Below are positions 22,787 through 41,904 of a stretch of 64,000 bases of DNA, in pieces; within the stretch, counting starts at the first letter, position 1; every line of letters starts with the position of its first letter. Source of the DNA: Amycolatopsis solani (GTDB lineage Bacteria; Actinomycetota; Actinomycetes; Mycobacteriales; Pseudonocardiaceae); the NCBI RefSeq assembly GCF_033441515.1, contig NZ_JAWQJT010000002.1:2542001-2606000 (forward strand), written 5' to 3'. Below the pieces are notes generated by a model, which made no database searches, was not told where the DNA came from, and saw nothing but the letters and a program-made list of their open reading frames with translations. The translations under genes and the position numbers were made by a program.

Positions 22787-23647
22787 GTGGGTGCGAACGG
22801 AATCACCCGGGTCGGCGTGGTCGGCTCGGGCACGATGGGCGCGGGGATCGCCGAGCTCTGCGCGACCCGGGGGCTGGACGTCCGGCTGGCGGTGTCACGG
22901 GAGTCGTCGCTGACGACGGCGCCGCGGAAGATCTCGGCGTCCCTCGACCGCCGCGTCGGCAAGGGGAAGCTGACGCCGGCCGAGCGCGATGCCGCGCTGG
23001 CCCGGATCAGCGTCGGCACGGACCTCGCCGACCTCGGCGACCGCCAGCTCGTCATCGAGGCGATCCCCGAGGACGAGCAGCTCAAGCTCGGGCTCTTCGC
23101 CACCCTGGACAAGATCGCCGGCGACGACACCGTGCTGGCCAGCACCACCTCGGCGATCGCGATCACCCGGCTCGCCGCGGCGACCACGCGCCCGGACCGG
23201 GTGCTGGGCCTGCACTTCTTCAACCCCGTCACCGCGCTGCGGCTCGTCGAGATCGTCCCGGCACTCGCGACGGCCACCGAGGTGACCGAGCGGGTGACGG
23301 CCTTCGCGGAGCACACCCTCGACCGGCAGCCGGTCAGCGTCGCCGACCAGAGCGGCTTCGTCGTCAACGCCCTGCTGATCCCGTACCTGCTCGCGGCGAT
23401 CCGCATGGTCGACACCGGCTACTGCCCGGCCGCGGACGTCGACCTCGCGATGGAGCTGGGCTGCGCCCACCCGATGGGCCCGCTCAAGCTCGCCGACCTG
23501 ATCGGCCTCGACGTCGTCGCCGCCATCGCGGCCGCATTGCACGAGGAGTTCAAGCAGCCCCTCTACGCCGCCCCGCCGTCGCTTTCCCGGCTCGTCGAAG
23601 CCGGCCACCTCGGCCGCAAGACCGGCCGCGGCTTCCACACCTACTGA
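22787..23647 (+). CDS. 3-hydroxyacyl-CoA dehydrogenase (3-hydroxybutyryl-CoA type)
   Basis: A 286-residue NAD(P)-dependent dehydrogenase. The Rossmann motif GVVGSGTMGAGIAE is at about residues 8-21; the catalytic His/Glu region LGLHFFNPV and the C-terminal domain (DQSGFVVNALLIPYLLAAIRM, GCAHPMGPLKLADLIGLD) are complete. It interconverts 3-oxoacyl- and 3-hydroxyacyl-CoA, most likely C4 or short chains. The GTG at 22787 precedes the conserved NAD domain by six residues; its ribosome site is weak. It opens the biosynthetic operon, so here it may reduce a 3-oxoacyl-CoA formed by the KAS III enzymes (inference). Confidence 0.88.
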   Translation: MGANGITRVGVVGSGTMGAGIAELCATRGLDVRLAVSRESSLTTAPRKISASLDRRVGKGKLTPAERDAALARISVGTDLADLGDRQLVIEAIPEDEQLKLGLFATLDKIAGDDTVLASTTSAIAITRLAAATTRPDRVLGLHFFNPVTALRLVEIVPALATATEVTERVTAFAEHTLDRQPVSVADQSGFVVNALLIPYLLAAIRMVDTGYCPAADVDLAMELGCAHPMGPLKLADLIGLDVVAAIAAALHEEFKQPLYAAPPSLSRLVEAGHLGRKTGRGFHTY

Positions 23648-23664
23648 GCTCGAGGAGAAACTCC

Positions 23665-24873
23665 GTGCACTCGTTCCTGAACATCAAGAAGTCCGCCCGG
23701 ATCAGCGACGACTTCTGGGACGTCACCGACAAGGCCGGCCTGTTCGACGTCGTCGTCGCCGGGCTCGGCGACGGCCGCCACCGCGCCCTCGCCGACGGCC
23801 ACGAGTTCGTCAACATGTCCTCGTATTCGTACCTCGGCCTCGACACCCACCCGAAGCTGGTGCGGGCCGCGGCCGACGCCGTGCTCGCCGAAGGCGCGCT
23901 CAACACGTCGACGTCCCGGATGCGTGTCCGCTTCGGTGTCCTGAAGGACGCCGAAGCCGCCCTGTCCGAACTGTTCGACGTCGAGGCCGTGACGCTCAAC
24001 TCCTGCGCCGCCGCCGCGTGGGCCGCGCTGCCGCTGGTCGCCTCCGGCATCTTCACCGAAGGCGAGCCGCCGCTGATGGTGTTCGACAAGAACGCGCACT
24101 TCTGCCTCAACGCCATGAAGCCGAGCGTCGCCGACGAAACCGAAGTCGCCGTGGTGCCGCACAACGACGTCGAGGCCCTGGAGGCGTTGTGCAAGCAGCA
24201 CAAGCGGGTCGCCTACGTCGCCGACGGCGTCTACAGCACCGGCGGCCAGGCCCCGGTGAAGGAACTCCTGGCCCTGCAGGAGAAGTACGGCCTGTTCCTG
24301 GTCTTCGACGAGGCCCATGGCATCTCGACCGTCGGCCACCGCGGCCGCGGTGTCGTGCTGGAGGAACTGGGCCAGATCAACGACCGCACGATCATCATCA
24401 CCTCGCTGAACAAGGGTTTCGGCGCGTCCGGCGGCGCGATCTTCCTCGGCAAGCGCGGGTCCCAGTGGCGGCTGGACACCGCGCAGCGCAACGGCGGCCC
24501 GCTGATGTGGTCGCAGCGCATCAACACCGCCGGCCTCGGCGGCCTGCTCGCGTCCGCGGAACTGCACCGCACCGACGAGCTGACCGCGCTGCAGCAGCGG
24601 CTGCAGGACAACATCGCGCTCTTCGACCGCCTGGTGGAAACCGGCGAACGCGGCGACGGCCTGCCGATCCGGTTCGTTCGTGTGGGGTCGGAGGACGCGA
24701 CCGTCCGGCTCGCGCAGGACCTGTTCCGCGCCGGGTTCTACGTGTCGCCGATCTTCTTCCCGATCATCGGCCGCGGCAAGGCGGGCCTGCGGATCATGCT
24801 GCGCGCCAGCATGACCACCGCCGAGATCGAGCAGTTCGCGGGGTTGCTGACGTCCCTGGGCGCCGAGGCATGA
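23665..24873 (+). CDS. alpha-oxoamine synthase-family PLP enzyme
   Basis: A 402-residue fold-type I PLP enzyme of the 8-amino-7-oxononanoate/serine palmitoyltransferase family, which joins an amino acid to an acyl thioester with loss of CO2 to give an alpha-amino ketone. VFDEAHGISTVGHRGRG supplies the cofactor Asp and His (D215, H218), and SLNKGFGASGG holds the internal aldimine lysine K250. The usual T-F-G/S-K core around the lysine is replaced by TSLNKGFG, so this is a divergent subgroup. The GTG at 23665 follows GAGGAG. The stop overlaps the next start. It is the probable carbon-carbon-forming step between an amino acid and a chain made by neighbouring enzymes. Confidence 0.85.
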   Translation: MHSFLNIKKSARISDDFWDVTDKAGLFDVVVAGLGDGRHRALADGHEFVNMSSYSYLGLDTHPKLVRAAADAVLAEGALNTSTSRMRVRFGVLKDAEAALSELFDVEAVTLNSCAAAAWAALPLVASGIFTEGEPPLMVFDKNAHFCLNAMKPSVADETEVAVVPHNDVEALEALCKQHKRVAYVADGVYSTGGQAPVKELLALQEKYGLFLVFDEAHGISTVGHRGRGVVLEELGQINDRTIIITSLNKGFGASGGAIFLGKRGSQWRLDTAQRNGGPLMWSQRINTAGLGGLLASAELHRTDELTALQQRLQDNIALFDRLVETGERGDGLPIRFVRVGSEDATVRLAQDLFRAGFYVSPIFFPIIGRGKAGLRIMLRASMTTAEIEQFAGLLTSLGAEA

Positions 24874-26474
24874 CCGCTCTGCTCTCGACCATCGACGTCG
24901 GCTCGGACACGTTCCGCCGCAACATCGAAGACTTCGAAGCCAACCGCGACGTCATCGCCGCGGCCACCGCCGCCGCGGTCGCCGGCGGCACCGGGAAAGC
25001 GCACCGCAAGCACGCGGACCGCGGCAAGCTGACCGCCCGGCAGCGGATCGCGCGGCTGCTGGACCCCGGCACCCCGCTGCTCGAAGTCGGCCGGCTCGCC
25101 GCCCACGACGTCTACGACGAGCCGGTGCCCTCGGCCGCACTCGTCGTGGGCGTCGGGATCGTCGCCGGACGGCCGTTCATGGTCTTCGCCAACGACGCCA
25201 CCGTGAAGGGCGGCACCTACTTCCCGCTCGGCGTCCGCAAGCACCTGCGCGGCCAGAAGATCGCCCGGGAAAACGGTCTCGGCTGCATCTACCTCGTCGA
25301 CTCCGGCGGTGTTTTCCTGCCCCTGCAGGAGGACCTGTTCCCCGACGAAGACCACCTCGGCCGGATCTTCCGGAACATCGCCGAAATGTCCGCCGAAGGG
25401 CTGCCGCAGCTGGCGGCGGTGATGGGGTCGTGCACCGCGGGCGGTGCGTACATCCCGGCGATGTGCGACGAGACGGTGATGGTCCGCGGCACCGGCACGG
25501 TGTTCCTCGGCGGCCCGCAGCTGGTGCGCGCCGCGACCGGCGAGATCGTCGACGCGGAGACGCTCGGCGGCGCGGACCTGCACACCCGCGTCACCGGCGT
25601 CGCCGACCACCTCGCCGAGACCGACGACCACGCCCTCGAGATCCTGCGCGACCTCGCCGCGCGCAGCCCGCGGCCGCTGCTGGCCGCACCGTCCCGGCCG
25701 CCGCGCCCGCCGAAGTACGACCCGGCCGAGCTGGCCGGGGTCGTCAGCGCCGGGCTGAAGGAGCACATCCCGGCGCGGGAGATCCTCGCGCGGCTGCTCG
25801 ACGACAGCGAGTTCACCGAGTACCGCGCGCGGTTCGGCCCGACGATCGTCTGCGGGACCGGGCACGTCGGCGGTTACCCGGTCGGCGTGCTGATCAACGA
25901 CGGCGTGCTGTTCTCCGAGAGCGCCCAGAAGGCCGCCAACTTCATCGAGGTCTGCGCGCAACGCGATATCCCACTGCTGTTCCTGCACAACATCAACGGG
26001 TTCATGGTCGGCGCCGAATACGAAGCAGGCGGCATCACCAAGCACGGCGCCAAGCTCGTCAACGCCGTTTCGTGTGCGAAGGTGCCGAAGTTCAGCCTGG
26101 TCGTAGGCGGCAGCTACGGCGCGGGCAACTTCGCCATGTGCGGGCGGTCGATGGGCTCGCAGCTGATGGCGATGTGGCCGAGCGCACGGTCCACTGTGGT
26201 CGGTGCCGAGCAGACGGCGAAGGTGATGACGCAGATCCGCGCCGACCAGCTCGCCAAGGAGGGCCGCGAGCTGACACCCGAGGAAGAGGCGGCGATCCGC
26301 GAGCCGATCCTCGCCTCCTACGAGCGGCAGGCGCAGCCGCTGTACTACGCGGCCCGGCTGTGGGTCGACGCCGTCGTGGACCCGGTCGAGACGCGGGACT
26401 GGCTGACGTTGTGCCTGGCCATGGCCGCCGACGCGCCGAAGCGGGAGACCCGCTTCGGGGTCTTCAGGATGTGA
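24870..26474 (+). CDS. acyl-CoA carboxylase beta subunit, methylcrotonyl-CoA type
   Basis: A 534-residue carboxyltransferase with two crotonase-like halves. The motif VFLPLQEDLFPDEDHLGRIF is the hallmark of methylcrotonyl/geranyl-CoA carboxylase beta subunits rather than propionyl- or acetyl-CoA types; GSCTAGGAYIPAM and GGSYGAGNFAMCGR oxyanion loops are intact. It moves CO2 from biotin to an acyl-CoA, by homology a branched enoyl-CoA. Start overlaps the previous stop (ATGA). It pairs with the biotin protein 7 bp downstream. Its place in the cluster suggests supply of an unusual extender or acyl unit; leucine catabolism is the alternative. Confidence 0.88.
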   Translation: MTALLSTIDVGSDTFRRNIEDFEANRDVIAAATAAAVAGGTGKAHRKHADRGKLTARQRIARLLDPGTPLLEVGRLAAHDVYDEPVPSAALVVGVGIVAGRPFMVFANDATVKGGTYFPLGVRKHLRGQKIARENGLGCIYLVDSGGVFLPLQEDLFPDEDHLGRIFRNIAEMSAEGLPQLAAVMGSCTAGGAYIPAMCDETVMVRGTGTVFLGGPQLVRAATGEIVDAETLGGADLHTRVTGVADHLAETDDHALEILRDLAARSPRPLLAAPSRPPRPPKYDPAELAGVVSAGLKEHIPAREILARLLDDSEFTEYRARFGPTIVCGTGHVGGYPVGVLINDGVLFSESAQKAANFIEVCAQRDIPLLFLHNINGFMVGAEYEAGGITKHGAKLVNAVSCAKVPKFSLVVGGSYGAGNFAMCGRSMGSQLMAMWPSARSTVVGAEQTAKVMTQIRADQLAKEGRELTPEEEAAIREPILASYERQAQPLYYAARLWVDAVVDPVETRDWLTLCLAMAADAPKRETRFGVFRM

Positions 26475-26481
26475 GGGGACG

Positions 26482-28434
26482 ATGCCGAAACGTGTGCTGA
26501 TCGCCAACCGCGGGGAGATCGCCCGCCGGATCGCCCGCACCTGCCGCCGGCTGGGCGTCGACCACGTGGCCGTGCATTCGGACGCCGATGCCGGAGCGGC
26601 CCACCTGGACGGCGCCGTGGAGTCCGTCCACATCGGACCCTCGGCGGCGCGGGAGAGCTACCTCGACATCGACGCCGTCGTGGAGGCCGCCCTGCGCACG
26701 GACTGCGACGCCGTGCACCCGGGGTACGGATTCCTCTCGGAGAACCCGGAATTCGCCGCGCGCGTCACCGAAGCCGGTCTGGTCTACATCGGACCGGATG
26801 CGGCGACCATCGCGGCGATGGGGGACAAGGCCCGCGCCCGGGAGCTGATGGCCGCGGCCGGCGTCCCGGTGCTGCCGGGATCCGAGCACGCGACGGAATC
26901 GGCGGACGTCCTGCTCGCCGACGCCCGCCGGATCGGTTACCCGGTGATCCTGAAGCCGGTCGCCGGGGGCGGCGGCAAGGGGATGCGCGTGGTGCACACC
27001 GAAGCGGAGCTGCCCGAGGCGGTCGAGGAGGCGGTGCGGCTGGGCCGCGCCGGGTTCGGCGACGGACGGCTGCTGGCCGAACGCTACGTCGCCGCGCCGC
27101 GGCACATCGAGGTCCAGGTCTTCGGCGACCACCACGGGAACGTCGTCCACCTCTTCGAGCGCGAATGCTCGCTGCAGCGGCGGCACCAGAAGATCGTCGA
27201 GGAGGCCCCGGCCCCGCACCTCCCGGCGACGACGCGCCACGCTCTGCTGAACGCGGCGGTCCGCGGCGCCACCGCGCTCGGCTACGTCGGGGCGGGCACG
27301 TTCGAGTTCATCCTCGACGGCGACGGCCGGTTCTTCTTCCTCGAGGTCAACACCCGGCTGCAGGTCGAGCACCCGGTCACCGAGGAGATCACCGGACTCG
27401 ACCTGGTCGAATGGCAACTGCTCGCCGCCGACGGCGAGCCGCTCCCGCTGCCGCAGTGGCAAATCCGGGCCACCGGCCACGCGATCGAGTGCCGGGTCTA
27501 CGCCGAAGACCCCGAGCACGGGTTCCGGCCCGCGCCGGGACACGCCGAGGTCGTCCGCTGGCCGGCGGGCGTCCGCGTCGAGGCCGCGTTCGACGAGTCC
27601 GGCGCGGTGCCGGGCTTCTACGACCCGATGGTCGCGAAGCTGGTCGCCGCCGGTCCGGACCGCGACACCGCGCTCGCTCGCCTCCGCGCGGCGATCGAGG
27701 ACACCACGCTCGTCGGGCTGACCACCAACCTCGGCTTCCTCGCCGAACTGCTGGCCGAGCCGCGGGTCGCCGAAGGCCGGGTCGACACCCACCTCGTCGA
27801 CGCGTTGACCGCTCGCCCGGTGCCGCACAGCCGGGACGCCCAAGCGCTCGCGTGCGCGGCGGCCATGGCCGTGCCTCTCCGGGAGACGGGTGCGTCGCCG
27901 TGGACCGGCACGCTCGGCGCGTTCGACCGCGCCGCGCTCGATCCGGAGGCGCCACTCGGCCGGATCGTGCTGCGCCACGACGGCCGCGACCGCGAAGCCC
28001 GGCTGCTGGCCCGCGACCGGGCCGGACTGCACGTCGAAACCGGCGGCCGCCGGTACGCCGTAACCGCCGAGCGCGGGCCGGACGGGCTGGTCCGCGGCCG
28101 GATCGGGACCACTCCCTGGACGGGGTTGCCCACCGCGGGCGGCTACGAGATCGTCCTCGGCGGCCACCGGGTCGCCCTGGCGCGCCGCACCTTCGACGAA
28201 GGCGGCGGCGACGCCTCCGACGGCGCGGTGCGCACGCCGATGCCGGGGGTCGTCGTCGGCGTCGCCTGCGAACCCGGGGCCCGGGTCGAACCGGGGGAGC
28301 TGCTGGTGGTCGTCGAGGCGATGAAGATGGAGAACCGCATCGTCGCGCCGTTCGCCGGGACCGTCGAGCGGCTTTCCTGCGCCCTCAACGCGAACGTCAC
28401 CGCCGGACAGGTCCTGGTCACCTTGAAACCCTGA
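26482..28434 (+). CDS. acyl-CoA carboxylase alpha subunit (biotin carboxylase + BCCP)
   Basis: A 650-residue protein. Residues 1-445 are biotin carboxylase (KRVLIANRGEIARRI, Gly-rich ATP loop PVAGGGGKGMRVV, EVNTRLQVEHPVTE); a linker domain follows; the C-terminal 70 residues are the biotinyl domain with the attachment lysine K615 in EAMKMENR. It carboxylates biotin with bicarbonate and ATP for the beta subunit encoded just upstream. Beta-before-alpha order and the length match actinobacterial methylcrotonyl-CoA carboxylase pairs. Confidence 0.93.
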   Translation: MPKRVLIANRGEIARRIARTCRRLGVDHVAVHSDADAGAAHLDGAVESVHIGPSAARESYLDIDAVVEAALRTDCDAVHPGYGFLSENPEFAARVTEAGLVYIGPDAATIAAMGDKARARELMAAAGVPVLPGSEHATESADVLLADARRIGYPVILKPVAGGGGKGMRVVHTEAELPEAVEEAVRLGRAGFGDGRLLAERYVAAPRHIEVQVFGDHHGNVVHLFERECSLQRRHQKIVEEAPAPHLPATTRHALLNAAVRGATALGYVGAGTFEFILDGDGRFFFLEVNTRLQVEHPVTEEITGLDLVEWQLLAADGEPLPLPQWQIRATGHAIECRVYAEDPEHGFRPAPGHAEVVRWPAGVRVEAAFDESGAVPGFYDPMVAKLVAAGPDRDTALARLRAAIEDTTLVGLTTNLGFLAELLAEPRVAEGRVDTHLVDALTARPVPHSRDAQALACAAAMAVPLRETGASPWTGTLGAFDRAALDPEAPLGRIVLRHDGRDREARLLARDRAGLHVETGGRRYAVTAERGPDGLVRGRIGTTPWTGLPTAGGYEIVLGGHRVALARRTFDEGGGDASDGAVRTPMPGVVVGVACEPGARVEPGELLVVVEAMKMENRIVAPFAGTVERLSCALNANVTAGQVLVTLKP

Positions 28435-28445
28435 AGGAGAAACCC

Positions 28446-29699
28446 ATGCCCGAAACCCTGCTGTTCGTCGGGGGCGCCCGGCCGCTCAGCTTCAGCCTCG
28501 ACATGGCGGCCGAGGCACTGGCCCAGGCCGCGGCGCGCGGCCTGCGCGTGCACGTCACCAACACCGCCGAGGTCCTCGCCGCCACCGAAGACGTCGTCGG
28601 GAAGGCCTCGGAGACGTCCACTGTGGACATCCTGAAGCCCGGCGAGTCCGCGGCCTGGGCGAAGGCGCGGGACGAGCACTTCGACGCCGTTTACGCGCTC
28701 CAGGAGCTGGCCCAGGTCGCCGTCGCCGAGACGGCCGAAGCGGTCGGCGCCCCGGGCAACCCGCCGGAGGCCGTCCACCGCGTCCGGACCAAGGACGCCT
28801 GCCGGGAAGCGCTGGCCGCCGCCGGGTTCCCGCAGCCGGTCGTGCGGTTGTGTGCCGACGAAGCCGCGGCGGCGGCGTTCCTGCGCGAGTACGCGGGGCC
28901 GTGGATCGTCAAACCGCGGGACGCCATGGGCAGCACCGGCGTGAGCCTGGTGACCGAGCCCGCGCGGCTGGCCGCGGCGATCGCCCTGCTGCCGGACACG
29001 AAGCCGTTCCTCGTCGAGCAGTTCGTCGAGGGGCCGGAGTTCAGCGTCGAAGGCGTCTTCCTCGGGGGTGAGCCGAAGATCCTCGCCGTGACGGCCAAGG
29101 AGAAGGTGCCGCCGCCGTTCTTCGTCGAGACCGGGCACGTGCTGCCCGCGCCGCTGCCGGACGCCCGGCGCCGGGAGATCGAAGACCAGGTGTCGAGCGC
29201 GCTGAAGACGCTCGGGCTGCGCGTCGGCGGCTTCCACGTCGAGCTGTGGCTCACCGCGGACGGCGTCGTGCTCGGCGAGGTGCACGGCCGCTTCGGCGGC
29301 GACTGGATCCACCGCATGCTCGCCCACGCCATCCCCGGCCTCGAGCTGTACGGGCTGGTGTTCGACGACATGCTCGGCCGTCCGGTCACCGGCGTCCCGC
29401 TGACGCCGAGCCGCGGCGCCGCCGTCCGGTACCTGACACCGCCGCCCGGGCGGCTGGCCGCCGTCGAAGGCTGGGACGAGGTGCTCGCCCACCCCGCCGT
29501 CCTGCACGCGGAACTGGGCGTCGGACCCGGGGACGAAATCAGGCCCTTGCACCGCTCCGGCGACCGCGTCGGCCTGATCGTCGTCGGCGCCGAGACGCCC
29601 GAAGCGGCCAGCGCGCTGGCCGCCGACCTCGTGGACTCGGTGAAGTTCGTGCCCGAGTCCGAACCCGACCGCCTGCCGGGCCTGTGGGCCCTGCGCTGA
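28446..29699 (+). CDS. ATP-grasp carboxylate-amine ligase
   Basis: A 417-residue ATP-grasp enzyme. N-terminal Rossmann-like domain (LLFVGGARPLSFSLDMA), then VRTKDACREALAAAGFPQP and the ATP loop PWIVKPRDAMGSTGVSLV at about 155, the Mg-binding GEVHGRFGGDWIHRML, and a C-terminal LAL-type domain. Relatives activate a carboxylate as acyl phosphate and couple it to an amine (L-amino acid ligases, dipeptide or amide synthases). The ATG at 28446 follows GAAGGAG. In this operon it probably forms the amide or peptide bond of the product; substrates are unknown. Confidence 0.87.
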   Translation: MPETLLFVGGARPLSFSLDMAAEALAQAAARGLRVHVTNTAEVLAATEDVVGKASETSTVDILKPGESAAWAKARDEHFDAVYALQELAQVAVAETAEAVGAPGNPPEAVHRVRTKDACREALAAAGFPQPVVRLCADEAAAAAFLREYAGPWIVKPRDAMGSTGVSLVTEPARLAAAIALLPDTKPFLVEQFVEGPEFSVEGVFLGGEPKILAVTAKEKVPPPFFVETGHVLPAPLPDARRREIEDQVSSALKTLGLRVGGFHVELWLTADGVVLGEVHGRFGGDWIHRMLAHAIPGLELYGLVFDDMLGRPVTGVPLTPSRGAAVRYLTPPPGRLAAVEGWDEVLAHPAVLHAELGVGPGDEIRPLHRSGDRVGLIVVGAETPEAASALAADLVDSVKFVPESEPDRLPGLWALR

Positions 29700-29710
29700 C
29701 CGAGGACGAC

Positions 29711-30748
29711 ATGACCGACATCGGCATTCTCAGTACCGGCTCTTATCTGCCCGACCGCGTGGTCCCCAACGCCGAGATCGCGCCGGCGGCGGGCGTCGAC
29801 GCGGCGTGGATCGAACGCAAGACCGGCATCCGCGAGCGCCGGCACGCCGCACCCGGGCAAGCGACGTCCAACCTCGCGGCGATCGCGGCCGACCGGGCCC
29901 TGCTCGCGGCGGGCTTGAGCCCGGACCACGTCGACCACATCGTCGTCGCGACCTCCACCCCGGACCACCCGCAGCCGGCGACGGCCAGCCTGGTGCAGCA
30001 CCTGATCGGCGCCCGCTCGGCTTCGGCGGTCGACGTCAACGCGGTGTGCAGCGGGTTCGTCTACGCGCTGGCGATGGCCCAGGGGCTGGTGCGCGACGGC
30101 GGGCACGCGCTGGTGATCGGCGCCGACATCTACTCCCGCATCCTGGACGTGCGTGACCGCAAGACCGCGATCCTGTTCGGTGACGGGGCGGGGGCGGTCG
30201 TGCTCGGCCCCGTTCCGGCGGGAGGGGGCGTCATCGGCACGCGGCTGCGCGGACACGGCGACGCCCACCGCCTGATCGGCGTGCGCGCCGGCGGCAGCCG
30301 CATCCCGGCGTCGGTGCGTTCGGTTCTGGACGGCGAGCACTTCTTCCGCATGGACGGCCGTGGCGTGCGCGAGTTCGTCACCGGGCACGTGCCCGACGCG
30401 ATCGCCGGGGCGTTGCGGGAAAGCGGCCTGCCCGCCACCGCCGTCGACCACTTCGTGCCGCACCAGGCGAACGGCGTCATGCTGCGTGAACTGGGGGAGA
30501 CGCTCGACCTGCCCAATGCCGCCCTGCACCTGACCGTCGACCGCTTCGCCAACACCGGCGCGGCGTCCGTGCCGATCACGCTCGACACCGCCCACCACGC
30601 CGGCGCGCTGAACGTCGGCGACGTCGTGCTGCTCGCGGGGTTCGGCGGCGGCATGAACCTCGGCGTCGGCCTGTGCCGGTGGACCGCCGCCCCGCCGCGG
30701 CCCGAAGCCGGCGTCGAGGACCGCGCCGTCACCCTGTCCCACCACTGA
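29711..30748 (+). CDS. free-standing ketoacyl synthase III (first copy)
   Basis: A 345-residue KAS III-like thiolase-fold enzyme. The triad is complete: C113 in DVNAVCSGF, H251 in VPHQANG and N281 in ANTGAAS. It should join an acyl-CoA starter to a malonyl-type thioester, or transfer an acyl group to an alcohol or amine as CerJ-like members do. No acyl carrier protein gene is visible nearby, so CoA substrates are likely. It follows the ATP-grasp gene by 11 bp and precedes an MFS exporter. A second, clearly related copy lies at 36385. Confidence 0.9.
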   Translation: MTDIGILSTGSYLPDRVVPNAEIAPAAGVDAAWIERKTGIRERRHAAPGQATSNLAAIAADRALLAAGLSPDHVDHIVVATSTPDHPQPATASLVQHLIGARSASAVDVNAVCSGFVYALAMAQGLVRDGGHALVIGADIYSRILDVRDRKTAILFGDGAGAVVLGPVPAGGGVIGTRLRGHGDAHRLIGVRAGGSRIPASVRSVLDGEHFFRMDGRGVREFVTGHVPDAIAGALRESGLPATAVDHFVPHQANGVMLRELGETLDLPNAALHLTVDRFANTGAASVPITLDTAHHAGALNVGDVVLLAGFGGGMNLGVGLCRWTAAPPRPEAGVEDRAVTLSHH

Positions 30749-30760
30749 GGAAGGCCTGCC

Positions 30761-32185: not shown

Positions 32186-32236
32186 GAACCATTGCCCCTC
32201 AACGTGTTCTCCCGGCGGGGGTGGGACGCCGAGGTC

Positions 32237-32881
32237 GTGATCCGCGTCCTGCTGATCCTGTCCTGCGCACACCGGTCCCGCCGGATCGGGCGGCTGCTCG
32301 CCGCGGAGGCCGACATCGAGGTGCGGTACCGCGGCGCCGCGAGCTGGAGCGGTGTCGTGACCGAGCTCGCGGAGTTCGCGCCGTCGGTGGTGGTGCTCGA
32401 CCGGGCCGTGCTCGGCGAGGAGGGCGTCACGGCCATCGGGGACATCGTGCGCGCCGCCCGCTCGCCCGCCGTCGTGCTCGTGGCCGACACCTACCACCCG
32501 GCGGACGCGCTGCCCGCCGCGCGGGCCGGCGTGCGCGGCTACGTCGTCGACGGCGCTGGCACCGGCCCGTGGGCGGCCGTGGTCCGCGCGGTCGCGGCGG
32601 GCGAGGCCTGGCTGGCCCCGCCCGCGGCCGGCGACCTGCTCGACGAACTCCGCGCGCGGGCGCCGCTGCGGCCGCGGGAGCCGCCGCAGGTTCCGTTGAC
32701 CGAACGGGAACTGAGCGTGCTCCGGCTCGTGGCGCAAGGCTGCTCGAACCTGGAGGTGGCGGCGGAGCTGGGGCTGAGCCAGTCGACGGTCAAGACCCAC
32801 GTGTCCCGCATGCTGGCCCGCCTCGACCTGCGCAGCCGTACCCAGCTGGCCGCCTTCGCGCGGGACCTCGGCATCGTGTGA
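32237..32881 (+). CDS. atypical NarL/LuxR-family response regulator
   Basis: A 214-residue protein with a receiver-like N-terminal domain and a C-terminal LuxR helix-turn-helix (PLTERELSVLRLVAQGCSNLEVA, STVKTHVSRML). The receiver keeps an aspartate at the phospho-acceptor place (D55, VVVLDRAVLG) but lacks the acidic pair after strand 1 (IRVLLILSC in place of a DD motif) and the conserved lysine after strand 5 (RGYVVDG). It is therefore unlikely to be switched by normal phosphorylation, and no histidine kinase is next to it. The GTG at 32237 begins the receiver fold; a frame reaching back to 32057 adds residues without domain character. Confidence 0.78.
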   Translation: MIRVLLILSCAHRSRRIGRLLAAEADIEVRYRGAASWSGVVTELAEFAPSVVVLDRAVLGEEGVTAIGDIVRAARSPAVVLVADTYHPADALPAARAGVRGYVVDGAGTGPWAAVVRAVAAGEAWLAPPAAGDLLDELRARAPLRPREPPQVPLTERELSVLRLVAQGCSNLEVAAELGLSQSTVKTHVSRMLARLDLRSRTQLAAFARDLGIV

Positions 32882-34062: not shown

Positions 34063-34159
34063 ATTCCGCGCCTTTCTTTCGTTTTTCGGATATCGGCAGG
34101 CACGTCGTCCGGTGAATCATGGATTCCAGCCGGAAAACAAAACGTGCGAAGGAGGGAAA

Positions 34160-35125
34160 GTGCCGCCGATGATCCGGGTGGAAAACCTGGTCAAGCGGTT
34201 CGGGCGGACCACGGCGCTCGACCGGGTCGGATTCACCGCCGCCGCGGGCACCGTGGTCGGCGTGCTCGGCCCGAACGGTGCCGGGAAGACGACCGTGGTC
34301 CGGATACTGGCCACGCTGGTGCGGCCGGACGACGGCCTGGTCCAGGTCGGCGGGCTCGACGTGACGCGCGAACCGGCGCGGGTGCGCGCGCTGCTCGGGC
34401 TCACCGGCCAGTACGCGTCGGTCGACGGGGACCTGACGGGCACGGAAAACCTGGTGCTGTTCGGCCGCCTGCTGGGGCTGTCCCGCCCGGTGGCGCGGGA
34501 CCGGGCGGCGGAGCTGCTCGAGCGCTTCGAGCTCGGCACCGCCGCCACCCGGCCCGCGGCGACGTACTCCGGCGGCATGCGCCGCCGGCTCGACCTGGCC
34601 GCCAGCTTGGTCGGCCGGCCCCGGGTCCTCTGCCTCGACGAGCCGACGACCGGGCTCGACCCGCACGTCCGGCGCGAGCTGTGGCAGGTGGTGCGGGAGC
34701 TGGTGGCCGAAGGCGTCACGGTGCTGCTCACCACGCAGTACCTGGAGGAGGCGGACCGCCTCGCCGACCGCGTCACGGTGTTCGACGCGGGCCGGGTGGT
34801 CGCCGACGACAGCCCCGCCGAGCTCAAGCGCCGGATCGGCGACCGCACGGTGCAGGTCCGGCCCGCGATCGCCGAGGACCTCGACGCGACCGCCCGCGTC
34901 CTGGCCAAGCTGACCGGCGTCACGCCGACCCGCGACGCGGGCACCGGCCTGCTCACCGCCCCGGCCGCCGACCCGATGGTGCTGTCCACTTTGGTCCGTG
35001 AGCTGGACCGGGCCGGGCTTGCTGTGGCCGAACTGGCGTTGCGGCTGCCGAGCCTGGACGAGGTTTTCCTGGCGTTGACGGGAAAGCCGGCGCTCCCCAC
35101 GGCCCACGAAGGAGGTGCGCGATGA
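34160..35125 (+). CDS. DrrA-type ABC exporter ATPase
   Basis: A 321-residue daunorubicin-resistance-type ATPase. Walker A GPNGAGKTT at about 37-45, signature TYSGGMRRRLDLA, Walker B LCLDEPTTGLD and the C-terminal PSLDEVFLALTGKPA tail typical of DrrA. It powers the DrrB-like membrane partner and would export the cluster product, giving self-resistance. The GTG at 34160 follows AAGGAGGG; an ATG nine bases on is possible. Its last 35 codons are part of a tandem duplication that also includes the start of drrB. Confidence 0.9.
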   Translation: MPPMIRVENLVKRFGRTTALDRVGFTAAAGTVVGVLGPNGAGKTTVVRILATLVRPDDGLVQVGGLDVTREPARVRALLGLTGQYASVDGDLTGTENLVLFGRLLGLSRPVARDRAAELLERFELGTAATRPAATYSGGMRRRLDLAASLVGRPRVLCLDEPTTGLDPHVRRELWQVVRELVAEGVTVLLTTQYLEEADRLADRVTVFDAGRVVADDSPAELKRRIGDRTVQVRPAIAEDLDATARVLAKLTGVTPTRDAGTGLLTAPAADPMVLSTLVRELDRAGLAVAELALRLPSLDEVFLALTGKPALPTAHEGGAR

Positions 35126-36136: not shown

Positions 36137-36155
36137 CGGAGAGGTGAACCAGGCC

Positions 36156-36374: not shown

Positions 36375-36384
36375 AAAGGCGCCC

Positions 36385-37395: not shown

Positions 37396-39365
37396 TCCGG
37401 GTGCCGCGCTCCGGGCCGCCTCGCCACGAAGTCGAGTTCCGCGGCGACGTGCGCATCCCGTCGAGCGAGCCGGGGCTGACCCTCGGCGCCGATCTCTACC
37501 TGCCCAAGACGGCCCACCGCGTGCCGGTGCTGGTGACCCTCCACACCGGACGCAAGGACGGTCTCGGCGGCATCGCGGCGAGCCGGTACCTGCGCTACTT
37601 CGCCGAACGCGGCTACGCGGTGCTCTACGTCGACTGCTTCGGCATCGGGACGTCCGAGGGAACACCACGGCCCCTGCTGAGCCCGGGCGAGGTCGCCGAC
37701 GGCGTTTCGGTGGTGCAGTGGGCCGCCGCGCAACCGTGGTGCACCGGCCGGGTCGGCATGTGGGGCCTGTCCCACGGCGGCATGACGACGCTGGCCGTCG
37801 CCGCGGAGCGACCGCCCGCGCTGAAGGCGATCTTCCCGGTGATGGGCTGGACCGACGTCGAACGCGACCTGGTGCACCCGGCCGGCCTGCGCGGCGGGAT
37901 CGGGATGTTCGGGCACCTGAGCCTCTACCACATCTTCTGCGCCCTGCTGCCGCCGTTGCGGGACCACGACCGCGAGACCTACGAAAGCGTGTGGAAGGAA
38001 CGGCTGGAGAAGTTCGAGCCGTGGTTCGCCGACGCCTGGGAACACCCGCCCGGGCACGAAGTCTGGGCGCAACGCCGGATCGACGCGCGCCGGATCACCG
38101 TGCCGTCGTTGTGCGTCGCGGGCTGGCGGGACCTGTTCTGCGACGGGATGATCACCGCCTACCAGCAGATCCGGGCGCCGAAACAGCTGATCGCCGGCCC
38201 GTGGCTGCACACCTTCCCGGATGTGGCGGCGGTCGAGCCGTTCCCGTCGGCGGTGCTCGCCTGCGCGTGGTGGGACCGGTGGCTGCACGGCCGGGCACCG
38301 CGGGCGGGCAATCGCGAGCGGACGGCGATCTTCTTCGTCCAGGGCGCGGGCGCCCGCTGGGTCCGCGCCGGGCAGTGGCCGCCGGAGAAGAAGGCCGACC
38401 ACGTCTTCGTCGCCTCCCGCACCGGGCACCTGTACCGGTCCGCGCCGGGCGGGCGCCCGTCGGCGGCCGCCACCGTCACCGGCCGGGGTGACCCGACCGT
38501 GGGCGCGTTGAGCGGCCTGACGAAGCACCCGACCGACCGCTTCGGCTACCCGCTCGACCAGCACGACGACGACGCCCGGACGCTCGCGTTCACCAGCGCG
38601 CCGCTGCCGGAGCCGCTGCTGATCGCCGGCCGGCCGTCGGTGCGGCTGCTGCTGGGCCCCGGCACCACCGCGACCCGGTGCGTGCTCAAGGTGACCGACG
38701 TCGACGAACAGGACCGCTCGCTGCTCATCGCCGCGGGCACCGTGGATCTGGCCCGGCGCGAGGACGTCGTCCAGGTGCCGCTCGACCCGACGTGCTACCG
38801 GGTCGCCGCGGGCCACCGCGTGCGGCTGGTGCTGGCCGAAGCGGACATCCCGCGGCTGTGGCCCGCCGAGGAGCCGGGACTGCTCGGCGTCCGCGTGATC
38901 CGCGGCCCCGGCGACTACGTCGGTCTCGCCGCCGAGGAGTACGAAGGCCACCACGCCACGACGCTGAGCCTGCCCGCGGCCGATCCGGCGGCGCTCACCG
39001 ACGTGGCGGTTCCGCCGCCGGACCGGCGGAGCCCGCCCGGCCCCGGGCGTGACCGCTGGGAAATCGCCCGCGACCACCTGCGCTCGTCGGTCCGGCTGAC
39101 CGTGGAAAAGCGCGACCGGATCCGGGTCCCCGGCGACGACCGGGACTTCCTCGCGATGACCACGCAGGTCGACCTGGGCGTGCCGGAGCACCACCCGGCG
39201 GCGGCGCGCATGACGGCGAAGGGGGAGAAGACCGCCGAAACCCCGGACGGCGACCGGGTCGTCGTCCGGGCCGGCATCGACATGGGGGCCGCCGACGCCG
39301 CCGTCACGGCCGAAGTGCTCGTCAACGGCACGCAGTTCTTCACGCGGGAGTGGAAATGGACCTGA
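37392..39365 (+). CDS. CocE/NonD-family serine hydrolase (first copy)
   Basis: A 657-residue alpha/beta hydrolase of the X-Pro dipeptidyl-peptidase/cocaine esterase family. Nucleophile S127 lies in GLSHGG (usually GxSYxG), the acid is in GWRDLFCDG and the His in AGPWLHTFP. A C-terminal jelly-roll (X-ProD_C) covers about 410-657. Relatives cleave esters or amides, and NonD makes lactone/ester bonds in nonactin assembly, so a bond-forming role is possible. No signal peptide is seen, so it is cytoplasmic. It is coupled to the KAS III gene by a GTGA overlap. A homologue is encoded at 48359. Confidence 0.88.
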   Translation: MIRVPRSGPPRHEVEFRGDVRIPSSEPGLTLGADLYLPKTAHRVPVLVTLHTGRKDGLGGIAASRYLRYFAERGYAVLYVDCFGIGTSEGTPRPLLSPGEVADGVSVVQWAAAQPWCTGRVGMWGLSHGGMTTLAVAAERPPALKAIFPVMGWTDVERDLVHPAGLRGGIGMFGHLSLYHIFCALLPPLRDHDRETYESVWKERLEKFEPWFADAWEHPPGHEVWAQRRIDARRITVPSLCVAGWRDLFCDGMITAYQQIRAPKQLIAGPWLHTFPDVAAVEPFPSAVLACAWWDRWLHGRAPRAGNRERTAIFFVQGAGARWVRAGQWPPEKKADHVFVASRTGHLYRSAPGGRPSAAATVTGRGDPTVGALSGLTKHPTDRFGYPLDQHDDDARTLAFTSAPLPEPLLIAGRPSVRLLLGPGTTATRCVLKVTDVDEQDRSLLIAAGTVDLARREDVVQVPLDPTCYRVAAGHRVRLVLAEADIPRLWPAEEPGLLGVRVIRGPGDYVGLAAEEYEGHHATTLSLPAADPAALTDVAVPPPDRRSPPGPGRDRWEIARDHLRSSVRLTVEKRDRIRVPGDDRDFLAMTTQVDLGVPEHHPAAARMTAKGEKTAETPDGDRVVVRAGIDMGAADAAVTAEVLVNGTQFFTREWKWT

Positions 39366-40552
39366 CCGGGCTCGAACGTCCGCTGAACTACCTGGAGCTG
39401 GCCCACCTCGACCGCGTGGTGATCATGGCCGCGGAGTACGACGGCGAGCTGGACCCCGTCGTGCTCGCCCGTGCGTTCCGGCACCTGTGCGCGGTCCACC
39501 CGGTGCTGCGCGCCCGGGTCCGCGGGACCTCCCCGGAGGCCGTGCTGGCCGTCGCCCCGGACCACGAACCGGAGCTGATCGTCCTGCCGGACGGGGCGGA
39601 CGCGCTGGCCCGGATCGCCGCGCTGCCGTGGGACGCCACCGCCGGGGTCGCCGACCTCGTGCTCGTCCAGGGGGACGCGCACGGGTACGTGGCCCTGCGT
39701 ACCGACCATTCGATCACCGACGCGAACGCGTGGCTCGGCACCTTCCGGGAGCTGCTGCGGGTGTTCACCGCGTTCGCGTCGGGGGAGGAGCCGGTGAGCG
39801 AGCCGGGCACGGCGTTGCCGGCGCCGCCCGCCGCGCTCTTCCACGAGCGGCTCGGCCTCATCCCGTACGACCGGCGGCTGTTCCACTCCGCGACCCCGCC
39901 CGAGCCGTCGGCCGCGCCGGCGGGCCTGTTCAGCGGCTACCTCCGGCTCGGCGTCGCGGAGACGCAGTGGCTCAAGCGCGCGGCCCGCCGGTACGAGACG
40001 ACGGTGCACGGCCTGGTCGCCGGCGCGATCCTGCTCGCCCAGCGCGTGCTGGCGGGCGGGCGGGAGACCGTGCCGATGTACTGCGTCTCGCCGGTGGACT
40101 TCCGCCGCCGCGTCGACCCGCCGGTGGGCGAGCTGGAGACGACCAACTTCATGATGTCGTACGTGGCCGAGACGGGCGTTTCCCCGCGGCTGAGCCCGGT
40201 CCTGGTCGGCCGCGAGGTCAAGGCCCGGATGGACGAGGTGCTGGCGGGCCCGGAAGGCGTCCGGGAAGCGGCGCCGATGGAGGACGCGCTCGGGCGCAAC
40301 CTCTCCTACGCGCTGATCAGCAACCTCGGCGTGGTCGAAGAGTTCCCGGCGCCCGCCGGGCTGGAGTTCTCCGAGATCCACATCCTCGACACGGTCGGCG
40401 ACACCTTCTTCCCGGGCTACTACGTCTCGACGTACCGCGACCGGCTCACCGTGCTGCACATCTTCACCGAACGGTTCTTCAGCCGCGGCGACGTCGACCG
40501 GCTGGTCCGCGAGCTCCACGAGCAGCTGCTCATCGTCGGTGCTTCGGCTTAG
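39356..40552 (+). CDS. PapA-like condensation-domain acyltransferase
   Basis: A 398-residue free-standing protein with the chloramphenicol acetyltransferase/condensation fold. The catalytic motif is DHSITDA: the second His (H118) and the Asp (D122) of HHxxxDG are kept, while the first His is Asp and the Gly is Ala. SPVDFRRRVDPPVG fits the second structural motif of PapA-type enzymes, which move acyl groups to hydroxyls. ATG at 39356 (GGGAG 6 bases upstream) overlaps the hydrolase gene by 10 bp. Likely a tailoring O- or N-acyltransferase working before or after the glycosyltransferase downstream. Confidence 0.78.
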   Translation: MDLTGLERPLNYLELAHLDRVVIMAAEYDGELDPVVLARAFRHLCAVHPVLRARVRGTSPEAVLAVAPDHEPELIVLPDGADALARIAALPWDATAGVADLVLVQGDAHGYVALRTDHSITDANAWLGTFRELLRVFTAFASGEEPVSEPGTALPAPPAALFHERLGLIPYDRRLFHSATPPEPSAAPAGLFSGYLRLGVAETQWLKRAARRYETTVHGLVAGAILLAQRVLAGGRETVPMYCVSPVDFRRRVDPPVGELETTNFMMSYVAETGVSPRLSPVLVGREVKARMDEVLAGPEGVREAAPMEDALGRNLSYALISNLGVVEEFPAPAGLEFSEIHILDTVGDTFFPGYYVSTYRDRLTVLHIFTERFFSRGDVDRLVRELHEQLLIVGASA

Positions 40553-40566
40553 GGAGGAAGGGATCC

Positions 40567-41838
40567 GTGAAGGTTCTGCTGCTGACCCACGGCAGCCGCG
40601 GCGACGTCCAGCCGTTCGCCGCGCTCGCTGCCGCGCTGACCGGGGCCGGGCACGACGTGGTGCTGGCCGCGCCGGCGTCTTCGGCCGCGGTGGCCGAGGC
40701 CCACTGCACGCGGGTGCTCCCGCTCGACGACGGGACGAACAAGCTGGTCGACGACCGGGCGGCGTGGGAGGCCGTCGAACGCAACTTCCGCGGCCTGCGC
40801 GGGAAACGGCTCGGCGTGCGACTGGCGCGCCGCAACCGCCTCGCCATGCGGCGGGTGTTCGACGACCTCGCGGCACTGGCCCGGACGACGGCCGGCGCCG
40901 TCGACCTCGTCGTGCACCAGGTCAACGTGCCCGGCCACGCGATCGCCGAACTGCTGGGCGTCCCGGCGGTCCCGGTGTGCCTGCAGCCGTTCTGGGTGCC
41001 GACGCCGTCGTTCCCCGACCCGCTGTTCCCGTACCGGCTGCCCGCGGCGCTCAACCGGGTGTCGTACCTGTCGACCAGGACGTTCGTGCGGGCCCTGACC
41101 GGCAGTCCCGCGCGGTTCCGGCGGGACGGGCTCGGCCTGCCCCGCCGCCGGTTCGCCGCCGACCCCCTCCGACGGCCCGGCGGCGGCCCGGCGCCGGTGC
41201 TGCAGGCGTTCAGCCGGCACGTGCTGCCGCCGGGGGCGCGGTACCCGGAAAACGTGCACACGCCGGGGTTCTTCTTCCTGCCCCCGGCACCGTGGACCGC
41301 GCCGCCCGACCTGGCGGCCTTCCTCGCGGGCGGCGAGCCGCCGGTCTACGTCGGGTTCGGCAGCATGGTCGGCAGCGACCCGGCCCGCACTGGCCGCATC
41401 GTGGCGGAAGCGTTGCGCGCCACCGGAGTCCGGGCGATCGTCGCGCTCGGCCGTGGCGGAATCCGGCCGGACGGCCTGGGGGACAACGCGTTCTGCCTGA
41501 CGGAGGCCCCGCACGACTGGCTGTTTCCCCGCACGGCCGCGGTCGTGCACCACGGCGGCGCGGGCACGACGGCCGCGGCGCTGGCGGCCGGGCGCCCCCA
41601 GGTGGCTTGCCCGTTCATGTTCGACCAGCCGTACTTCGGCCGCCGGCTGTTCGCGTTGGGGGTGGCCCCGCCACCGCAACCCTTGCGGGAGCTGACCGCG
41701 GACGGCTTGGCCCGCGCGATCGGCGACGCGGTCGCGGGAACCACCCCGGCCCGCGCGAAGGAGCTGGGCGAGCTGATCCGCGCGGAGGACGGCGTCGGCC
41801 ACGCGGTCAAGGTGCTCGAGGAGGTCGGCGCGGGTTGA
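40567..41838 (+). CDS. GT1-family glycosyltransferase
   Basis: A 423-residue GT-B enzyme of family 1, similar in layout to antibiotic (GtfB/OleD-like) and sterol glucosyltransferases. The N-terminal GSRGDVQPFAALAAAL motif for acceptor/phosphate contact and the C-terminal donor motif VHHGGAGTTAAALAAGRPQV (with the later DQPYFGRRL) are intact. It would attach a sugar from an NDP donor to the product or to a toxic intermediate. No deoxysugar genes lie in the window, so a common sugar such as glucose is likely. The GTG at 40567 follows GGGAGGAAGG. It ends the plus-strand cluster just before a nested palindrome. Confidence 0.88.
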   Translation: MKVLLLTHGSRGDVQPFAALAAALTGAGHDVVLAAPASSAAVAEAHCTRVLPLDDGTNKLVDDRAAWEAVERNFRGLRGKRLGVRLARRNRLAMRRVFDDLAALARTTAGAVDLVVHQVNVPGHAIAELLGVPAVPVCLQPFWVPTPSFPDPLFPYRLPAALNRVSYLSTRTFVRALTGSPARFRRDGLGLPRRRFAADPLRRPGGGPAPVLQAFSRHVLPPGARYPENVHTPGFFFLPPAPWTAPPDLAAFLAGGEPPVYVGFGSMVGSDPARTGRIVAEALRATGVRAIVALGRGGIRPDGLGDNAFCLTEAPHDWLFPRTAAVVHHGGAGTTAAALAAGRPQVACPFMFDQPYFGRRLFALGVAPPPQPLRELTADGLARAIGDAVAGTTPARAKELGELIRAEDGVGHAVKVLEEVGAG

Positions 41839-41901: not shown

Positions 41902-41904
41902 GCG

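What the first reader, a model, noticed from the sequence alone, without database searches (positions are those of the whole stretch)
22787..41838. Biosynthetic locus built on an oxoamine synthase, two free-standing KAS III enzymes and an ATP-grasp ligase
The plus-strand genes combine a 3-hydroxyacyl-CoA dehydrogenase, alpha-oxoamine synthase, methylcrotonyl-type carboxylase, ATP-grasp ligase, two KAS III, CocE/NonD hydrolase, PapA-like acyltransferase and GT1 glycosyltransferase with two exporters and three regulators. No modular PKS, NRPS or carrier protein is present. I do not recognise this combination. A plausible scheme is: KAS III makes a 3-oxoacyl-CoA, the dehydrogenase reduces it, the oxoamine synthase joins it to an amino acid, the ATP-grasp enzyme adds an amine, and the last enzymes acylate and glycosylate.
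Basis: partly seen in the sequence, partly recalled or inferred. Interest (0 to 1): 0.72.

Follow-up and report, generated by a model that had tools for sequence, protein, structure and literature searches.

The report
Carboxylase-fed oxoamine synthase pathway
Two separately inherited gene sets lie side by side here; the first looks like an undescribed carrier-free pathway that joins a carboxylated acyl-CoA to an amino acid and then adds another amino acid, a chemistry related to the known ketomemicin-type pseudopeptides but with a different precursor supply.

Summary
Of 80 genomes of the genus, 6 have module 1 (22787-31981) and 9 have module 2 (32192-41838 and on to about 50200); 2 have both, and in one of these, A. 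vancoresmycina, they lie on different contigs. So KAS III no. 2, CocE, PapA-like and GT1 should be taken out of the pathway.

Module 1 is HBDH, oxoamine synthase (AOS), MCC-type carboxylase (two subunits), ATP-grasp ligase, KAS III, MFS. It groups apart from the hosts' own MCC, and its distances track the AOS (r=0.93) where host MCC does not (r=0.00; 9 genomes). Best reading: the carboxylase makes an unsaturated dicarboxylic acyl-CoA, the AOS condenses it with an amino acid, the ATP-grasp adds an amino acid, the MFS exports. Relatives: ketomemicin, dynaplanin and albogrisin AOS; I found no paper joining an AOS to a carboxylase. Substrates and product untested. New variant of a known kind.

The parts
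19307..22156 (-). LAL-type LuxR regulator, divergent from module 1; probable regulator of it (inferred from position)
   Evidence: AAA_16 + GerE; a 74-78% homologue sits divergently at module 1 in the 5 other Amycolatopsis genomes
22787..23647 (+). module 1: 3-hydroxybutyryl-CoA dehydrogenase (HBDH)
   Evidence: PF02737/PF00725, NF005875 399 bits over cut-off 319; nearest solved relative 6hrd; near the AOS in 13 of 26 loci
23665..24873 (+). module 1: alpha-oxoamine synthase (AOS)
   Evidence: NF005697; 53% identical to Alb29, PDB 8xha; 44-47% to the AOS of the Salinispora-containing, ketomemicin-type branch
24870..26474 (+). module 1: MCC-type carboxyltransferase (CT)
   Evidence: closest solved protein P. 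aeruginosa MCC beta 3u9r, 638 bits; in a CT group with 100/100 support apart from host MCCs
26482..28434 (+). module 1: biotin carboxylase + BCCP subunit (BC)
   Evidence: PF00289, PF02786, PF02785, PF00364; EAMKME biotin site in the translation (motif recalled)
28446..29699 (+). module 1: ATP-grasp L-amino-acid-ligase-like enzyme
   Evidence: PF13535 + PF18603 LAL_C2; 3vot L-amino acid ligase BL00235 at 4e-22; in 9 of 26 loci
29711..30748 (+). module 1: KAS III no. 1
   Evidence: PF08545/PF08541; Cys, His, Asn motifs kept; QAN-x-R Arg replaced by Val in the 8 module 1 copies read
30761..31981 (+). module 1: MFS exporter
   Evidence: PF07690; 65-95% homologue ends the operon in the 7 other loci with the full gene set
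32192..32881 (+). module 2: LuxR-type regulator
   Evidence: GerE; at module 2 in 7 of the 8 relatives read, not called in L116
33166..34062 (+). module 2: AraC-type regulator
   Evidence: PF14525/PF12833; at module 2 in the 8 relatives read
34160..35125 (+). module 2: DrrA-like ABC ATPase
   Evidence: PF00005/PF13732
35357..36136 (+). module 2: ABC-2 permease
   Evidence: PF01061
36156..36374 (+). module 2: small DUF5988 protein (72 aa)
   Evidence: PF19450 57 bits over cut-off 27; coordinates; at the same place in 7 of 8 relatives read, not in L116
36385..37395 (+). module 2: KAS III no. 2
   Evidence: 91% homologue in A. vancoresmycina lies on another contig than the AOS; QAN-x-R Arg kept in 7 of 8 module 2 copies read, Met in L116
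37392..39365 (+). module 2: CocE/NonD hydrolase
   Evidence: TIGR00976 231 bits over cut-off 66; in 9 of 80 genus genomes
39356..40552 (+). module 2: PapA-like acyltransferase
   Evidence: PF16911
40567..41838 (+). module 2: GT1 glycosyltransferase
   Evidence: PF06722/PF00201; Rgt-like 140 bits, far below its cut-off of 800
41905..50227 (-). module 2, divergent arm: ABC transporter genes of dipeptide type, GH1 glycosidase (45429-46784), SBP_bac_5, second S15/CocE-like hydrolase (48359-50227)
   Evidence: Pfam for 41905-42600 and the genes from 45429 on; the two genes at 42587-45441 are named by eye; GH1 is in the same 9 of 80 genomes as CocE

Best explanation
Module 1 (22787-31981) is a self-contained, carrier-free pathway. 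Inferred steps: KAS III no. 1 makes a short 3-oxoacyl-CoA from CoA substrates; HBDH reduces it; a housekeeping crotonase dehydrates it; the MCC-type carboxylase adds CO2 at the gamma carbon, giving an unsaturated dicarboxylic acyl-CoA (glutaconyl-CoA type); the AOS condenses this with an amino acid with loss of the amino acid's carboxyl, giving an omega-carboxy alpha-amino enone, a stretched, unsaturated analogue of a ketomethylene pseudodipeptide; the ATP-grasp ligase couples an amino acid to it; the MFS exports it; the LAL protein regulates. Shown by sequence: gene content, the module border, the AOS-carboxylase linkage and their joint inheritance, a carboxylase of MCC rather than GCC type with a changed set of residues. 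Inferred: every substrate, the order of steps, the product and its use. Module 2 is a separate gene set with its own function.
For: Border: 6 of 80 genus genomes have the module 1 AOS at 95-100%, 9 of 80 have module 2, 2 have both; in one of these (A. vancoresmycina) module 1 is on contig 15 and module 2 on contig 1. Linkage: CT and BC both in 22 of 26 loci with AOS >=60% identity and 4 of 6 at 52-60%; 0 of 26 at 40-52% (partner counted at >=43% identity and 45% coverage). 23 cluster CTs form one group (100/100) apart from 11 host MCCs and 9 GCC-like CTs. AOS-cluster CT distance r=0.933, AOS-host MCC r=0.001 (36 pairs, 9 genomes). The MCC/GCC lineage carboxylates the gamma carbon of unsaturated acyl-CoA (PMC4673880, passages); 23 of 23 cluster CTs have the MCC 3-residue insertion. 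AOS enzymes that use an acyl-CoA in pseudopeptide making are known (PMC9239090, PMC11943689). KAS1 has lost the QAN-x-R Arg.
Against: No substrate is tested. KAS III no. 1 and HBDH are absent from many loci (present in 5 and 13 of 26), so they may serve another step. No crotonase is in the module. 4 of 26 loci have the AOS without an intact CT (L006, L015, L030 with an acyl-CoA dehydrogenase instead; L054 in pieces). The residue I take for the pocket Phe of MCC is Leu in 16 of 23 cluster CTs, the window's included, and Phe in 7, so the acyl group is not fixed by this. Two solved chains labelled propionyl- or acetyl-/propionyl-CoA carboxylase (9tps, and 4q0g AccD1) match the CT almost as well as MCC (about 610 bits). 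Pairs in the distance correlation are not independent, and the CT tree carries a long-branch warning for the join with the GCC-like rows. The joint presence of the two modules is above expectation though not significantly (odds ratio 4.8, p=0.13). [quoted passage not shown]
Confidence: 0.5

Rival explanations
1. One reading: both modules make one glycosylated, acylated compound, the AOS taking a 3-hydroxyacyl-CoA.
For: The two modules are adjacent and co-directional in this genome; KAS1 is the closest match to KAS2 in this genome, 53%; joint presence is 2 of 80 where about 0.7 is expected.
Against: 4 genus genomes have module 1 only, 7 have module 2 only, and A. vancoresmycina has both on different contigs; the excess is not significant (Fisher p=0.13; 1 shared genome of 79 without the window's, p=0.42).
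Confidence: 0.06
2. Module 1 makes a known ketomemicin/arphamenine/albogrisin-type compound.
For: AOS of the same subfamily: 53% to Alb29, 44-47% to the ketomemicin-type branch. The five Chromobacterium genomes searched each have one KtmB-like enzyme at E<=1e-20, the carboxylase-linked AOS, and arphamenines come from C. violaceum (PMC11943689, introduction).
Against: No aldolase, dehydratase or amidinotransferase, as listed for ktm, among the module 1 Pfam hits; none of the 26 loci with AOS at 40-52% has the carboxylase. I recall, not from a call, that arphamenine is made through benzylmalate, which needs no biotin carboxylase.
Confidence: 0.12
3. The carboxylase supplies 3-methylglutaconyl-CoA from leucine breakdown (ordinary MCC chemistry) and the AOS uses that; KAS1/HBDH do another step.
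For: CT is closest to MCC; 3-methylglutaconyl-CoA from the Liu pathway is reported as a natural-product precursor in caprazamycin (PMC9636800, passages); many AOS-CT-BC loci lack KAS III and HBDH.
Against: The host has another MCC-like CT, 54% identical, with BC and what reads by eye as an acyl-CoA dehydrogenase beside it; 25 columns separate cluster CTs from host MCCs, two with an aromatic residue lost (F330T, W434A), hinting at another acyl group.
Confidence: 0.25
4. The genes are primary metabolism (biotin AONS and a second leucine MCC) that happen to adjoin.
For: Families also occur in primary metabolism.
Against: The bioF model scores 150 bits against a cut-off of 426; a second, 27%-identical AOS-family gene is elsewhere in the genome; AOS, CT and BC recur together with an MFS in two phyla; 6 of 80 genus genomes only.
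Confidence: 0.03

Closest known systems
Ketomemicin (ktm) pathway, KtmB
   Same: AOS of the same subfamily joins an amino acid to an acyl-CoA; ATP-grasp ligase; no NRPS (PMC11943689, introduction and passages).
   Different: ktm has aldolase, dehydratase, amidinotransferase and dehydrogenase; module 1 has carboxylase, HBDH, KAS III and MFS. AOS 44-47% identical to the Salinispora-containing branch.
Dynaplanin (dynVWXYZ), DynZ
   Same: Stand-alone AOS plus one N-acylating enzyme are the two genes required in a heterologous host; cluster missed by typical algorithms (PMC9239090, abstract, passages and section 8).
   Different: DynY is a GNAT acyltransferase, not an ATP-grasp; the word carboxylase does not occur in the main text. 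I had no DynZ sequence to compare.
Albogrisin AOS Alb29 (PDB 8xha)
   Same: Nearest characterised AOS, 53% identity; [quoted passage not shown]
   Different: The Leu reported for Alb29 I place in LNSSLSR; the window has LNTSTSR with Thr there (my alignment). I did not see the alb cluster; three loci on the Alb29 branch (L028, L029, L032) show no CT or BC, L032 and L028 being cut by a contig end.
3-Methylcrotonyl-CoA carboxylase
   Same: Two-subunit domain make-up, MCC-type insertion; 3u9r best solved hit.
   Different: Group apart from host MCCs; Leu at the presumed pocket Phe, 25 diagnostic columns.
Dedicated biotin carboxylase for alkylmalonyl-CoA extender units (PMC5187497, seen only as a search listing)
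   Same: A biotin carboxylase serving one natural-product pathway.
   Different: Feeds a modular polyketide synthase; here there is none.

Membership tests
Ketomemicin-type (ktm) cluster | KtmB-type AOS | tested here: met
   same subfamily model NF005697; 44-47% to the Salinispora-containing branch but in the other main branch of the tree
Ketomemicin-type (ktm) cluster | aldolase, dehydratase, amidinotransferase genes | tested here: not met
   none among Pfam hits of module 1
Ketomemicin-type (ktm) cluster | ATP-grasp ligase homologous to KtmD | tested here: inconclusive
   an ATP-grasp is present; one 450-aa Salinispora neighbour showed no similarity, but I did not establish which gene is ktmD
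gamma-carboxylating (MCC/GCC) acyl-CoA carboxylases | MCC-type beta subunit with 3-residue insertion absent from GCC | tested here: met
   23 of 23 cluster CTs and 11 of 11 host MCCs have it; 9 of 9 GCC-like lack it (rule from PMC4673880)
methylcrotonyl-CoA carboxylase (strict) | pocket Phe (Phe191) | tested here: not met
   Leu163 in the window; Leu 16, Phe 7 of 23 cluster CTs; Phe 11 of 11 host MCCs. That Phe191 is this column is my reading of the alignment
methylcrotonyl-CoA carboxylase (strict) | activity on 3-methylcrotonyl-CoA | not testable with these tools
   needs enzyme assay
L-amino acid ligase (ATP-grasp) | ATP-grasp plus LAL C-terminal domain | tested here: met
   PF13535 and PF18603 over cut-off
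FabH-type KAS III using acyl carrier protein | Arg of QAN-x-R (ACP docking; role recalled, not from a call) | tested here: not met
   KAS1: Val in the 8 module 1 copies read; KAS2: Arg in 7 of 8 module 2 copies read, Met in L116
8-amino-7-oxononanoate synthase (biotin) | TIGR00858 cut-off | tested here: not met
   150 bits, cut-off 426

The most novel reading that the evidence does not exclude
A cross-phylum family of natural-product pathways in which a dedicated gamma-carboxylating acyl-CoA carboxylase and an AOS act as one unit to make omega-carboxy alpha-amino enones: a second biosynthetic route to ketomethylene-like pseudopeptides, with accessory Claisen (KAS III or thiolase), dehydrogenase and ATP-grasp genes added or lost by lineage.
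Probability: 0.3. Interest if true: 0.72.

Novelty: new variant of a known kind. Interest (0 to 1): 0.5.

Why it matters
Ketomemicins and arphamenines are said to be the only known natural ketomethylene pseudopeptides (PMC11943689, introduction), and the related dynaplanin cluster was missed by typical cluster finders (PMC9239090, abstract). An AOS that travels with its own carboxylase through Actinomycetota, Chromobacterium and Burkholderiaceae gives a simple two-gene query for a possible new compound class, and predicts a chemistry (CO2 fixed into the acyl-CoA before the oxoamine condensation) that can be tested with three purified proteins. The module border also tells the experimenter which genes to delete or express.

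Tried and rejected
Tetrapyrrole antimetabolite idea: the expected product resembles 5-aminolevulinate, so I looked for a second HemB as self-resistance; 10 of 10 genomes have exactly one PF00490 gene, none near the cluster. Not supported, not excluded.

Arphamenine idea for the Chromobacterium loci: kept only as a rival. A thiolase and a beta-keto acid cleavage enzyme lie upstream of the AOS in L018, with same-family genes in L020 and L033.

Regulatory signals: the scan of 22100-42000 found 0 promoter-like sites (shuffles 0.4) and 6 terminator-like sites (shuffles 5.8), so it says nothing.

Phylum-wide frequency: 1 of 396 drawn genomes has the AOS at E<=1e-120, the window's own; only 4 candidates per genome were scored, so misses are possible.

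Literature: AOS/Alb29, ketomemicin with AOS, carboxylase, ATP-grasp, albogrisin (passages in PMC8399204 and PMC9672321, give no structure), aminoketone and others, arphamenine, MCC with AONS and pseudopeptide, alaremycin (listing only), glutaconyl/MCC, DUF5988, 0 papers, Amycolatopsis with AOS and ketomethylene. No listed title or abstract start, and no passage I read, describes an AOS with a carboxylase; most listed papers were not opened, and the library holds open-licence PMC papers only.

No structure prediction was run: a 53%-identical AOS and MCC beta subunits have solved folds, and I saw no way to get coordinates for a pocket comparison.

Errors of mine, corrected: the first gene caller lost an offset (redone); the first CT tree read minus-strand loci on the wrong strand and the second held wrongly framed rows; both are superseded, which leaves out L106-L109.
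Full report
1. What is there. The window lies in a 10.3-Mb genome (G000:C2:2542001-2606000) that I take for Amycolatopsis from the 97% identical AOS of named Amycolatopsis records. A gene caller of mine based on codon-position GC gave 52 genes. Seven genes from 22787 to 31981 are packed with gaps of -4 to 17 bases, then 210 and 284 bases flank the LuxR gene.

2. Two modules. In A. vancoresmycina the AOS operon lies on contig 15 with amino-acid ABC genes and the LAL regulator upstream, while LuxR-AraC-ABC-DUF5988-KAS III-CocE-PapA-GT and the divergent transporter genes lie on contig 1. Among 80 genomes of the genus, this one included, the AOS at 95-100% identity is in 6 (two more have only 42-46% relatives), CocE at E<=1e-150 in 9, eight of them at 91% or more (15 candidates scored per genome), and the GH1 glycosidase of the divergent arm in the same 9. 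Both modules: 2 of 80, the window genome and A. vancoresmycina. About 0.7 would be expected; the excess is not significant (odds ratio 4.8, Fisher p=0.13; p=0.42 without the window genome). Gene order was read in seven further module 2 loci and two further module 1 loci. It is kept, with these exceptions: my caller shows no separate KAS2 and only a short PapA in L114 and no first ABC gene of the divergent arm in L113; the 63-79% relative L116 shows no LuxR homologue and no DUF5988. I conclude that module 2 begins at about 32192 and runs to about 50227, and is not part of the AOS pathway.

3. The AOS family. A scan of the genome-contig collection with peptide patterns of the AOS gave 59 loci; such a scan favours close kin. 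Counted with partners at 43% identity and 45% coverage or more: AOS at 60% identity or more, 26 loci, with CT 22, BC 22 (the same 22), HBDH 13, ATP-grasp 9, KAS III no. 1 5; at 52-60%, 6 loci, CT and BC 4 each; at 40-52%, 26 loci (the Salinispora-containing branch and L032), CT 0, BC 0. The window itself (L001) and L059, a fragment, are not in these counts. The entry 'KAS2 5' in that table is, I take it, KAS2 matching KAS1 genes, since no CocE, PapA or GT is found there. Arrangements read: HBDH-AOS-CT-BC-ATP-grasp-KAS III-MFS (Amycolatopsis, Actinospica, S. violaceoruber NRRL S-981); HBDH-AOS-MFS-CT-BC (Kitasatospora, Streptomyces, Microtetraspora); AOS-MFS-CT-BC (Chromobacterium, Burkholderiaceae, Rhodococcus, Actinomadura rayongensis); MFS-AOS-CT-BC (Nocardia colli); AOS-CT-BC-ATP-grasp-MFS (Kitasatospora sp. 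A2-31); acyl-CoA dehydrogenase-AOS-ATP-grasp-MFS (two Actinomadura, N. crassostreae). The inserted MFS (L018) and the acyl-CoA dehydrogenase (L006) were identified by Pfam. That the 40-52% branch is ketomemicin-type rests on its Salinispora members, where ktm is common (PMC11943689, passages), not on a gene-by-gene check. In the tree of 60 AOS the window sits with the carboxylase-linked rows; Alb29 is a long branch in the same half (support of that half 94/88), the ketomemicin-type rows apart (100/100); the tree has long-branch warnings and only a midpoint root. ATP-grasp and AOS hits in the protein searches share 16 'longest contig' lengths by my eye, among the 120 rows listed in each (of 569 and 276 hits), as expected if the genes are often linked.

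4. The carboxylase belongs to the AOS. Ten host genomes were searched for CT relatives; nine have a cluster CT (59-92% identical to the window's) and a distinct MCC-like CT (52-56%), and one (that of L006) only the latter and a 45% one. In the tree of 43 CTs the 23 cluster CTs form one group at 100/100; 11 host MCCs (78/76 as a group) and 9 GCC-like CTs (100/100) lie outside; the tool warns of long branches where the GCC-like rows join. Groups were assigned by me from identity and locus. Over 9 genomes (36 pairs) AOS distance correlates with cluster CT distance at r=0.933 and with host MCC distance at r=0.001; over 18 loci r is 0.973 for CT and 0.952 for BC (153 pairs) and, for the loci with HBDH (66 pairs), 0.912. 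Pairs are not independent, but host MCC is a fair control: AOS and CT were inherited together and not with their hosts' MCC.

5. What the carboxylase may do. PMC4673880 (abstract and other passages) separates alpha-carboxylating PCC from gamma-carboxylating MCC/GCC, and gives a Phe and a 3-residue insertion as the MCC signature against GCC. The window CT scores 638 bits to P. aeruginosa MCC and 409 to GCC; chains labelled PCC score 237 or less, except 9tps (labelled PCC beta, 610 bits) and 4q0g (AccD1, labelled acetyl-/propionyl-CoA carboxylase, 609 bits; from memory AccD1 is an MCC). The CT has the insertion, but Leu at what I read as the Phe position; 16 of 23 cluster CTs have Leu, 7 Phe. 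Twenty-five columns separate cluster CTs from host MCCs at 90% or more in both, among them F330T and W434A. I read this as gamma-carboxylation of an alpha,beta-unsaturated acyl-CoA, perhaps other than 3-methylcrotonyl-CoA. This is inference.

6. The other enzymes. HBDH is of the 3-hydroxybutyryl-CoA type. KAS1 keeps Cys, His and Asn; the Arg of QAN-x-R, which from memory is the ACP-docking residue of FabH, is Val in the 8 module 1 copies read, agreeing with the absence of a carrier protein. The Chromobacterium locus L018 has a thiolase and a beta-keto acid cleavage enzyme upstream instead. A chain from 3-oxoacyl-CoA to 3-hydroxyacyl-CoA to enoyl-CoA to carboxylated enoyl-CoA therefore fits, with a crotonase from the host. 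The ATP-grasp is of L-amino acid ligase type. The AOS has Thr in LNTSTSR where I place the Leu of Alb29; PMC11906848 (passages) reports that changes at this position widen substrate scope (Val in KBL, Thr in ALAS, Ser in SPT and AONS). This may favour a small amino acid, a weak hint.

7. Known relatives. Stand-alone AOS are known in ketomemicin, dynaplanin and albogrisin pathways (PMC11943689 introduction and passages; PMC9239090 abstract, passages and section 8; PMC11906848 passages). Caprazamycin shows that 3-methylglutaconyl-CoA can feed a natural product (PMC9636800, passages). I found no paper joining an AOS to a carboxylase, within open-licence PMC papers.

8. Verdict. I file module 1 as a new variant of AOS-based, carrier-free pseudopeptide-like pathways, product unknown.

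Noticed in passing
32192-50227: Module 2 as a unit: GT1 and a GH1 glycosidase, two CocE/S15-like hydrolases, PapA-like acyltransferase, KAS III, DUF5988, an ABC exporter and ABC genes of dipeptide type with SBP_bac_5; CocE and GH1 are in the same 9 of 80 Amycolatopsis genomes. A glycosylate-and-reactivate cycle is one guess; function unknown.
   Followed up: partly
36156-36374: DUF5988 small protein directly before KAS III, at the same place in 7 of 8 relatives read; no paper in the held library has the term DUF5988.
   Followed up: partly
16720-19297: Genes read by eye as a polar amino acid ABC transporter upstream of module 1, also next to it in A. vancoresmycina (92-96%), with related ones near the AOS of Actinomadura rayongensis.
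   Followed up: no
54930-55250: Long poly-C, poly-A and poly-G stretches (a run of 53 C at 55124-55176) in a 1.9-kb stretch without a called gene; may be a sequence or assembly artefact.
   Followed up: no
L006, L015, L030: Variant AOS loci with an acyl-CoA dehydrogenase-like gene (that of L006: best solved hit 63 bits) in place of the carboxylase, followed by ATP-grasp and MFS.
   Followed up: partly
L018 6104-9948: This Chromobacterium AOS locus carries an EamA transporter, a beta-keto acid cleavage enzyme, an esterase-like gene and a thiolase upstream of AOS-MFS-CT-BC.
   Followed up: partly
L054: Streptomyces sp. WAC08241 has HBDH, AOS and carboxylase genes in pieces, a decayed copy or sequence errors.
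   Followed up: no
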